NCBI GenBank assembly: GCA_961205875.1
Contig: OY540812.1
Span: 310,001 to 374,000, forward strand
Direction of reading: 5' to 3'
Length of the DNA: 64,000 nt
Origin: Sialis fuliginosa
Lineage: Eukaryota > Arthropoda > Insecta > Megaloptera > Sialidae
A program made the position numbers and the translations under genes. Shown here piece by piece: positions 36,801 through 38,107 of this stretch. Positions within the stretch are counted from its first letter, which is position 1, and every line of letters begins with the position of its first letter. The notes below the pieces were generated by a model, which did no database searches, had not been told where the DNA came from, and saw only the letters and a program-made list of their open reading frames with translations.

Positions 36801-37862
36801 TTATTAACGAGATACTGCCTTTCGTAATTTGGTTCCTTATTCAAAAAGAGAAGGTAGTCAATACTATTTTCATAATTTTTAACACTAGCATAATTAAAAT
36901 ACCCTAAAACTGAAAGTGCTAAAAAATTATTTTTCTTCAATTTTTAAATTTTACCTTTTTACATACAAAAAAAAACCCCACCCCTCTCTCAAAAATTAAA
37001 ATGACTTTGTTTGAAAACCACTGCTATAAAGTAGGTACCTATATAATATATATAATGTCCATTTTACGCATTTGTGTTTAACACCACATTAGTTGAACCC
37101 GCGGTTTTAGTGGTCTACAAAACAATCGGGCGTGTAAGCGGAGGTACGGACGGACGGACGCACGGACCGACACGCTTGGCGAACACTTGTAATTGGCGCT
37201 GTGACCTGGCCCGTTCTCTTCGACCATTTTTACGGAAATTAAGAAACTAATTATGAAGGTATATATTTTTTTTGCAGTTATTTTCTGTCGTATGACACGA
37301 ATCGTTTTACTGAATTAATTCAAATGAATTGAGTCACTTCAGATAACTAATAGATACTAATAACATAAATTCTTTTCAATATTGTTCCTGTAATGGAGGA
37401 AAAACAAAGAATGACAGTGTTAAGTACATTTTTTGCAATTATTTATAATTTTCATTTTTTATCTATCATAATTGTTAAATAAAATTGATAAATTCGGTGT
37501 GTGTGGGGGTAGGGGGGTTATAACCTCTAACCGCCCCTTTGGATGCACCATTGGTTAAGTATCGCTGGTTTAGTGGTATGTTATTACATAGAAACAAACC
37601 TGAGTGTTAAGTAACGCAATAATATGAAAGTTAATAGACTATCTATGTTAATAGTTAACATGTGTAGGTGGTCGAGTAAAAAATAGTCAATAAATATAAT
37701 CATCGATAACTTGACCTCTTAACTGGCTGTTGAACACATCACCTGTGTGACATGTCGACCTGCGCACGCGTTTGCGTGACCCTGCGCAGCGGGCGGTATG
37801 TCTGCGCTTTAATACAGGGCCGCATTCAAACTTTTATTGTAATTTCAAAAATACCAATTGTA
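36801..37862. other. Mixed low-copy stretch
   Basis: AAAACCACTGCTATAAAGTA near 37,015 resembles an hAT-type end. 37,140-37,220 is GC-richer with GGACGGACGGACGCACGGAC and GGCGCTGTGACCTGGCCCGT. A G/C hairpin (GGTAGGGGGGTTATAACCTC) lies at 37,509. 37,750-37,830 (GCACGCGTTTGCGTGACCCT, CAGCGGGCGGTATGTCTGCG) is another GC-richer patch. No gene is recognised. Confidence 0.3.
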
Positions 37863-38029
37863 CACTAAACTAAAAATACACCTTAACCACAAAAATTTAT
37901 GTCACTCGACACGTGTTTCTACTTCACAAGAAGTCCTCATCAGGAGCCTAACGATTCCAGACTTTGTGGTTAAGGTGTATTTTTAGTTTAGTGACTAAGA
38001 AACCACAGTTTCTTTGTTTTTCAAGTAAG
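37863..38029 (-). mobile_element. HH-B1: 167-bp inverted-repeat retroelement with 12-bp target duplication
   Basis: The segment is flanked on both sides by the same 12 bases, ATACCAATTGTA (37,851-37,862 and 38,030-38,041). Inside, a perfect 31-bp inverted repeat (37,863-37,893 and 37,963-37,993) brackets a hammerhead-like core on the minus strand. The tail to the right (AAGAAACCACAGTTTCTTTG) matches, inverted, the start of HH-B2 at 40.5 kb. The layout is one unit plus an inverted copy of its tail. Target duplications of about a dozen bases fit target-primed reverse transcription, as in Penelope-like elements. Confidence 0.7.
37900..37947 (-). ncRNA. Hammerhead-like ribozyme core (HH-B1)
   Basis: On the minus strand: stem I 5' side GCTC (37,947-37,944); CTGATGA (37,943-37,937); one extra G; stem II GACTTC/GAAGTA with loop TTGT (five of six pairs); GAA; stem III ACAC/GTGT, self-complementary (37,916-37,909); then C (37,908) at the cleavage position; then GAGT pairing with GCTC (one wobble). 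The order equals a type I hammerhead. Stem III has no loop, so activity would need a dimer or be weak. The extra base before stem II is not canonical. Confidence 0.5.
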
Positions 38030-38107
38030 ATACCAATTGTAAATAAATAATTTAATCTGTTGTTGAGGTTTCAATATTTAATATATATTTTTATTTATTT
38101 CTGTATA

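What the first reader, a model, noticed from the sequence alone, without database searches (positions are those of the whole stretch)
37851..38041. Small retroelement with hammerhead-like core, inverted arms and a 12-bp target duplication (HH-B1)
A 167-bp segment flanked by identical ATACCAATTGTA holds a 31-bp perfect inverted repeat around a core with every part of a type I hammerhead in order: GCTC / CTGATGA / stem II / GAA / ACACGTGT / C / GAGT. The flanking duplication shows it moved as a unit. It has no coding capacity, so it may be a small retroelement that relies on a Penelope-like enzyme. The clean pairing of stem I after the cleavage position makes chance unlikely.
Basis: partly seen in the sequence, partly recalled or inferred. 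Interest (0 to 1): 0.78.

Follow-up and report, generated by a model that had tools for sequence, protein, structure and literature searches.

The report
Tiny hammerhead retroelement inserted head-to-head
A 137-base jumping element carrying a self-cutting-RNA motif appears to have landed here as two copies facing each other, leaving the scars of a little-understood class of jumping genes called Penelope-like elements.

Summary
The sequence facts are real: a perfect 31-bp inverted repeat, an exact 12-bp flanking duplication and a hammerhead-like core on the minus strand. The arms are not a built-in part of the element. A second copy at 40499-40635 (minus), with its own 12-bp duplication (11/12), has one arm only: 5' end, hammerhead, arm, tail. 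HH-B1 is this ~137-nt unit inserted head-to-head: a 100-nt copy without tail facing a 67-nt copy with tail. Inverted copies, a 30-40-nt tail on one of them and a short duplication are published Penelope-like element (PLE) insertion features. An unrelated hammerhead at 43630-43666 sits in the same anatomy, with a 13-bp duplication. Ribozyme support is modest: Rfam Hammerhead_1 matches full length on the right strand but far below threshold (14.9 and 18.9 bits against 34), stem II is damaged differently in each copy, and other folds are favoured. Most likely a non-autonomous, PLE-mobilised hammerhead unit of retrozyme or pLTR origin. Genome-wide copies could not be examined: the own-genome search did not complete in 21 attempts.

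The parts
37851..37862 (.). Left target-site duplication ATACCAATTGTA
   Evidence: exact 12-bp direct repeat with 38030-38041
37863..37962 (-). Copy without tail (100 nt): 5' end GTCTGG, hammerhead, arm ending TTTAGTG; sense on the minus strand
   Evidence: 88/98 identical to positions 3-100 of the copy-2 unit
37863..37893 (-). Arm of the copy without tail (31 nt)
   Evidence: 100% complementary to 37963-37993
37902..37949 (-). Type I hammerhead-like core; predicted cut after C at 37908
   Evidence: RF00163 1-45/45, 14.9 bits, E 0.26, below gathering 34; descriptor scan
37963..38029 (+). Copy with tail (67 nt): arm + 36-nt tail, 5'-truncated just downstream of the hammerhead
   Evidence: 58/65 identical to positions 74-137 of the copy-2 unit
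37994..38029 (+). Tail present on one copy only (ACTAAG...AAGTAAG), with an AAGAAAC-CACA-GTTTCTT hairpin
   Evidence: hairpin not significant: 36 of 500 shuffles at least as stable
38030..38041 (.). Right target-site duplication ATACCAATTGTA
40499..40635 (-). Copy 2: unit of 137 nt without inversion (5' CAGTCTGG - hammerhead - arm - 33-nt tail)
   Evidence: RF00163 1-45/45 at 40573-40620, 18.9 bits, E 0.013, below gathering
40636..40647 (-). Copy 2 duplication, 5' side, ATAACAAATGAA
   Evidence: 11/12 match to 40487-40498; 13 of 20000 simulated flank pairs do as well
40487..40498 (-). Copy 2 duplication, 3' side, ATAATAAATGAA
43508..43754 (+). Unrelated hammerhead insert with the same anatomy: 13-bp duplication (43508-43520, 43742-43754), one-sided tail 43521-43552 (or -43554), arms 43553-43629 and 43667-43743 (76/77 identical, last 2 bases shared with the duplication), minimal hammerhead 43630-43666
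   Evidence: no Rfam hammerhead match

Best explanation
The unit is a ~137-nt non-coding retroelement: 5' end (CA)GTCTGG, type I hammerhead, ~31-nt arm, 33-36-nt tail. It is mobilised in trans by a Penelope-like element enzyme (GIY-YIG endonuclease plus reverse transcriptase). The enzyme would cut both DNA strands about 12 bp apart at AT-rich DNA and prime on the unit RNA at two internal start sites, one just before and one just after the tail. In copy 2 a single cDNA ran from the tail site to the 5' end. In HH-B1 both DNA ends were extended: one from the tail site (67 nt, stopping 14 nt short of the predicted hammerhead cut) and one from the no-tail site (100 nt, through the hammerhead to the 5' end). 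The two cDNAs were joined head-to-head, which made the 31-bp inverted repeat. Shown: copies, boundaries, orientation, duplications, one-sided tail. Inferred: the PLE enzyme, two-site priming on both strands, joining. Unknown: whether the hammerhead cuts.
For: Copy 2 holds the same unit without the left arm and with its own 12-bp duplication. Both copies share the 5' boundary within 2 nt and the tail end within about 2 nt. The two arms of HH-B1 are 31/31 identical while its pieces are 88/98 and 58/65 identical to copy 2, as expected if both arms were copied from one RNA at insertion. A sequence-unrelated hammerhead insert at 43508-43754 repeats the anatomy: one-sided tail, arms, hammerhead in the middle, 13-bp duplication. 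Published PLE anatomy: an inverted pLTR, most often head-to-head, a 31-bp tail optionally on one of the inverted pLTRs, TSDs of 8, 9 and 10 bp (PMC3846280, passages). The PLE protein PAc cleaves and extends both strands at AT-rich DNA and starts reverse transcription at two internal sites; the 30-40-bp tail is the sequence between them (PMC11167929, main text).
Against: No PLE protein found in the window: no closed stop-to-stop ORF of 130 aa or more; of 22 ORFs of 85 aa or more none has a reverse transcriptase or GIY-YIG match at E 0.1 (4 weak, below-cut-off matches to other families in 3 of them). Shorter, decayed pieces were not searched. Only two copies of this unit and one analogue. The tail hairpin is not significant (36, 60 and 186 of 500 shuffles for the three tails). 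The duplications (12-13 bp) are longer than the 8-10 bp in the passages read, where one Pen2 insert had none. PMC3846280 itself explains the inverted copies by self-priming, not by priming from both DNA ends; PAc showed no difference in start site between the two strands. L1-type twin priming can also invert a 5' part.
Confidence: 0.7

Rival explanations
1. A SINE-like hammerhead unit moved by a LINE; HH-B1 is an ordinary twin-primed (5'-inverted) insertion, as known for L1 (recalled).
For: Inversion of the 5' part relative to the 3' part and a 12-bp duplication fit twin priming. Hammerhead-bearing SINE-like repeats of schistosomes are on record (title of a cited reference seen).
Against: No poly(A) or simple-repeat 3' end is visible. 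The 31-nt overlap is long for a twin-priming junction (recalled, not looked up). The unrelated insert at 43508-43754 shows the same one-sided 32-34-nt tail, which twin priming does not predict.
Confidence: 0.15
2. A shrunken or solo pLTR of an autonomous PLE living in this genome, not an independent non-autonomous family. This is a sub-case of the best explanation, not exclusive of it.
For: In PAc the ORF begins at stem II of the hammerhead. Both copies have an ATG inside CTGATGA, but the frame stops after 12 codons. Solo pLTRs are known (PMC3846280).
Against: Copy 2 is bounded by its own duplication at both ends and HH-B1 shares its 5' boundary, so the 137-nt unit moves as such. Stem III (2 bp + tetraloop) is of the fuller kind described for animal retrozymes rather than the minimal PLE kind.
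Confidence: 0.3
3. PLE-type element, but the head-to-head pair arose by self-priming on an antisense template, as PMC3846280 proposes, rather than by extension of both cut DNA ends. Also a sub-case.
For: Proposed there for head-to-head inverted pLTRs with palindromes at the junction.
Against: No palindrome is evident at the HH-B1 junction 37962|37963, and the two copies start at different 3' sites; neither point was tested statistically.
Confidence: 0.2
4. A MITE-like DNA transposon with 31-bp terminal inverted repeats.
For: Perfect inverted repeat and flanking direct repeat.
Against: Copy 2 lacks one arm; the right arm ends 36 nt before the duplication.
Confidence: 0.04
5. The hammerhead resemblance is accidental, or dead sequence inside a small retroelement (compatible with the PLE reading).
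For: Sub-threshold Rfam scores and none in longer scans; stem II lesions differ in the two copies; hammerhead folds cost 11.1 and 13.9 kcal/mol over the predicted minimum, and the unconstrained fold does not contain the hammerhead.
Against: All core nucleotides are present in both copies; RF00163 matches 1-45/45 at the same place in each; simulated windows seldom hold such a site (3 of 500 with a stem I of 4 bp). Dead in these copies is quite possible; accidental is unlikely.
Confidence: 0.12

Closest known systems
Penelope-like elements (PAc of Anolis, Pen2a and others of Adineta vaga)
   Same: Head-to-head inverted repeat units, a 30-40-nt tail on only one, short duplications, AT-rich targets (PMC3846280 passages, PMC11167929 main text); a hammerhead at the pLTR-ORF start in PAc.
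   Different: No ORF; the unit is 137 nt; the hammerhead has a 2-bp stem III with tetraloop instead of the minimal PLE form; duplications of 12-13 rather than 8-10 bp.
Metazoan non-LTR retrozymes (PMC7229834; parts 2 and 3 of 6 and passages seen)
   Same: Small, non-coding, AT-rich, type I hammerhead, duplications longer than 4 bp.
   Different: 137 nt is below the ~170-400 nt given; no tandem copies here; circular RNA not tested. The words 'tail' and 'inverted' do not occur in that paper's main text.
Schistosome SINE-like hammerhead repeats (Sj-alpha; only a reference title seen)
   Same: Short interspersed repeat bearing a hammerhead.
   Different: Not compared in sequence; whether they have tails or inverted copies was not looked up.

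Membership tests
Type I hammerhead ribozyme (Rfam RF00163) | Conserved core CUGAUGA...GAA...H17 and three stems in type I order | tested here: inconclusive
   Core and stems I and III present in both copies; the base of stem II is unpaired in HH-B1 and a C.A mismatch lies in copy 2.
Type I hammerhead ribozyme (Rfam RF00163) | Score at or above the curated gathering score (34 bits) | tested here: not met
   No gathering hit in the window; 14.9 bits and 18.9 bits, both full length.
Type I hammerhead ribozyme (Rfam RF00163) | Self-cleavage | not testable with these tools
   Needs an in vitro transcript.
PLE-type insertion | Tail of 30-40 nt on only one of two inverted copies | tested here: met
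   36 nt in HH-B1; 32-34 nt in the 43508-43754 insert. Two inserts only.
PLE-type insertion | Short duplication at AT-rich DNA | tested here: met
   12, 12 (11/12) and 13 bp; A+T 9/12, 10/12 and 13/13. The window is itself about 70% A+T, so AT-richness says little.
Penelope-like element (autonomous) | RT + GIY-YIG ORF | tested here: not met
   Unit of 137 nt; frame from the ATG stops after 12 codons; no such Pfam match in 22 of 22 window ORFs of 85 aa or more.
Metazoan retrozyme | Type I hammerhead in a small non-coding repeat of about 150-450 bp, with tandem copies | tested here: inconclusive
   Small and non-coding, but 137 nt and single units; two copies in 64 kb, not in tandem.
Metazoan retrozyme | Expressed circular RNA | not testable with these tools
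   No RNA data.
MITE / TIR DNA transposon | Terminal inverted repeats shared by copies and abutting the duplications | tested here: not met
   Copy 2 has one arm; the right arm of HH-B1 is 36 nt from the duplication.

The most novel reading that the evidence does not exclude
A retrozyme-type hammerhead unit is caught here with the insertion scars of a PLE enzyme: a physical link between retrozymes and PLEs, which the papers seen argue from shared ribozymes, tandem copies and co-occurrence. In both head-to-head inserts of the window the copy with the tail stops just downstream of the hammerhead cut site (14 nt and 5 nt) while the copy without tail runs through it, so hammerhead cleavage of one template may set the junction. 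That would give the PLE hammerhead a role in making inverted insertions.
Probability: 0.2. Interest if true: 0.78.

Novelty: new variant of a known kind. Interest (0 to 1): 0.5.

Why it matters
How animal retrozymes move is unproven: PMC7229834 (passages) and PMC7761336 (passages) name PLEs as likely carriers from shared ribozymes and co-occurrence. The role of the PLE hammerhead is called a mystery (PMC7761336), and its cleavage was not needed for insertion in vitro (PMC11167929). A minimal 137-nt unit carrying both a retrozyme-like hammerhead and the PLE tail signature makes both questions countable in one genome: do hammerhead units share the one-sided tail, and do truncations pile up at the cut site?

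Tried and rejected
Terminal-inverted-repeat reading: rejected because copy 2 lacks one arm. microRNA-type Rfam hits on the segment (mir-2363 and others): below gathering; I take them as matches to the hairpin itself. Relatives elsewhere, exact patterns only: the unit's core gave 0 stretches in viral contigs and 0 in genome contigs; those answers note that records of the window's own genome may be left out. A pattern for minimal PLE hammerheads gave 45 viral stretches and 1 Vibrio stretch; in these 46 loci 0 of 49 pattern occurrences had a stem II of 3 bp together with a stem I of 3 bp or a surrounding inverted repeat, so I take them as chance. First descriptor scan too strict (0 sites in the window; 4 of 300 simulated windows), then relaxed; the relaxed control is the one quoted. 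A first duplication control was spoiled by the satellite array and was redone outside it. Promoter idea (CAGT initiator at the 5' end with a downstream element near +28): motifs from memory, two copies, not tested. Stronger constraint on the hammerhead than on the rest between the two copies: visible by eye, not tested.

Pieces of papers seen: PMC7229834 parts 2 and 3 of 6 plus passages; PMC11167929 main text plus passages; passages only of PMC7761336, PMC3846280, PMC8490949, PMC12910113 (nothing used) and PMC6431247 (nothing used).

Full report
What is in the sequence. The window is AT-rich (24.5-35% GC in 2-kb steps) and holds no closed stop-to-stop ORF of 130 aa or more. From memory, Helitron-like ends near 39090-39960 point to a moth or butterfly genome; no call tested that. 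The minus strand carries all core letters of a type I hammerhead.

The inverted repeat is not part of the element. BLAST of the segment against the window finds a second copy on the minus strand at 40634-40536 and, overlapping and continuing it, 40562-40498; the next best matches have E 0.4 or worse. The alignment shows that copy 2 runs 5' end, hammerhead, arm, tail with no second arm. A search for flanking repeats around copy 2 gave as its longest hit a 12-mer pair, ATAACAAATGAA / ATAATAAATGAA, that abuts the homologous unit at both ends; 13 of 20000 simulated flank pairs reach this. The unit is therefore 137 nt. In HH-B1 the 100-nt antisense piece starts at the same 5' boundary (GTCTGG, within 2 nt), and the 67-nt sense piece ends at the same tail end (AGTA/AGTAAG, within about 2 nt). 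HH-B1 is thus two partial copies of one unit, joined head-to-head, between one 12-bp duplication. The two arms are 31/31 identical while the pieces are 88/98 and 58/65 identical to copy 2, as expected if both arms were copied from one RNA in one event.

A second, unrelated case. The third CTGATGA...GAAAC site (43632, plus) lies at the centre of an inverted repeat. Reading the alignment, arms 43553-43629 and 43667-43743 match at 76 of 77 positions. The right arm runs straight into TATATAAAAATAT (sharing its first two bases), the same 13 bp as at 43508-43520; the left arm is separated from that by 32-34 nt. Five of 20000 simulated flanks have such a 13-mer, but the repeat is all A/T and the control is a first-order model only. 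Read with the hammerhead in sense, both inserts have the order: duplication, tail (antisense), arm (antisense), hammerhead, arm, duplication.

How it most likely works. Passages of PMC3846280 describe PLE inserts with an adjacent inverted pLTR, a 31-bp tail optionally on one of the inverted pLTRs, and duplications of 8, 9 and 10 bp, with one insert lacking a duplication. The main text of PMC11167929 reports that a PLE protein cuts and extends both strands, prefers AT-rich DNA and starts reverse transcription at two internal sites, the 30-40-bp tail being the sequence between them. These features explain HH-B1 point by point: two start sites give the end with and the end without tail, extension of both strands gives the head-to-head pair, a staggered cut gives 12-13 bp. 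The enzyme is inferred. PMC3846280 prefers self-priming for the inverted copies, and PMC11167929 saw no difference in start site between strands, so which site serves which strand would be free. Twin priming by a LINE is the main rival outside PLEs; it explains an inversion but not the repeated one-sided tail in two unrelated inserts.

The ribozyme. Rfam finds nothing at gathering level and no hammerhead in the permissive scans of 301 bases and 10 kb. On 71 and 76 bases alone, RF00163 appears at 14.9 bits (E 0.26) for HH-B1 and 18.9 bits (E 0.013) for copy 2, full length, right strand; these stretches were chosen around the motif, so the E-values flatter it. The insert at 43630 is not hit. The descriptor scan finds the three sites; of 500 simulated windows 19 had any site and 3 had one with a stem I of at least 4 bp, with a descriptor relaxed after a stricter one missed all three. 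Stem II is ACTTC/GAAGT with an unpaired GG/A base in HH-B1, and GA/TC + TTC/GAA around a C.A mismatch in copy 2. Forcing the hammerhead costs 11.1, 13.9 and 4.2 kcal/mol over the minimum fold for HH-B1, copy 2 and the 43630 insert; nearest-neighbour energies leave out hammerhead tertiary contacts. The very low folding z-score of the whole segment (-9.16) comes from the arms, not from the hammerhead, which that fold does not contain. I read this as true descent from a hammerhead, with activity of these copies doubtful.

Retrozyme or pLTR. The 2-bp stem III with tetraloop matches a description of invertebrate hammerheads, while PLE hammerheads are described as minimal (PMC7229834 parts 2-3; PMC7761336 passages). 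The small non-coding unit fits retrozymes, although 137 nt is below their stated range and no tandem was seen. The tail and inverted copies fit PLEs. The frame from the ATG inside CTGATGA, near where the PAc ORF begins, stops after 12 codons in both copies. I cannot decide between a retrozyme carried by a PLE and a shrunken pLTR; both are PLE-mobilised in my reading.

A lead. In both head-to-head inserts the copy with the tail ends just downstream of the predicted hammerhead cut (14 nt in HH-B1, 5 nt in the 43630 insert) and the copy without tail runs through the hammerhead. These are two cases, noticed after the fact; copy 2 shows that tail-bearing copies can also run through. PMC11167929 found cleavage unnecessary for insertion in vitro, which counts against a required role.

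Limits. The own-genome search did not complete (21 calls listed under Tried and rejected), so copy numbers, other inverted pairs and an autonomous partner are unknown. Paper searches behind the novelty statement: (10 of 19 papers listed). No title or abstract start in those listings names a hammerhead unit with a PLE tail, but most subscription papers, and the 2014 PLE-hammerhead paper (PMC4209133), are not held.

Noticed in passing
window 43508-43754: Minimal hammerhead in the centre of a 77-bp inverted repeat with a one-sided tail and a 13-bp duplication; same anatomy as HH-B1 but unrelated in sequence.
   Followed up: yes
window 25099-33874: Large satellite array with mixed periods (161, 194, 355 bp among others) and related pieces near 55045-55281 and 15191-15312.
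   Followed up: no
window 38407-38724: About 318-bp repeat with inverted ends (38422-38471 / 38676-38724, 94%) and relatives at 34603-34911 and 13333-13637; MITE-like.
   Followed up: no
window 39090-39960: Looks like a lepidopteran Helitron-type repeat (ends recalled, not tested); a poly-G run follows at about 40000.
   Followed up: no
window 41716-41836: Hairpin with a sub-threshold Rfam MIR4387 match (53.9 bits against 84).
   Followed up: no
window 40635-40499 (-): The 5' end CAGTCTGG of the unit resembles an insect initiator with a GGACTT near +28, perhaps an internal promoter overlapping hammerhead stem II (recalled motifs, two copies only).
   Followed up: no
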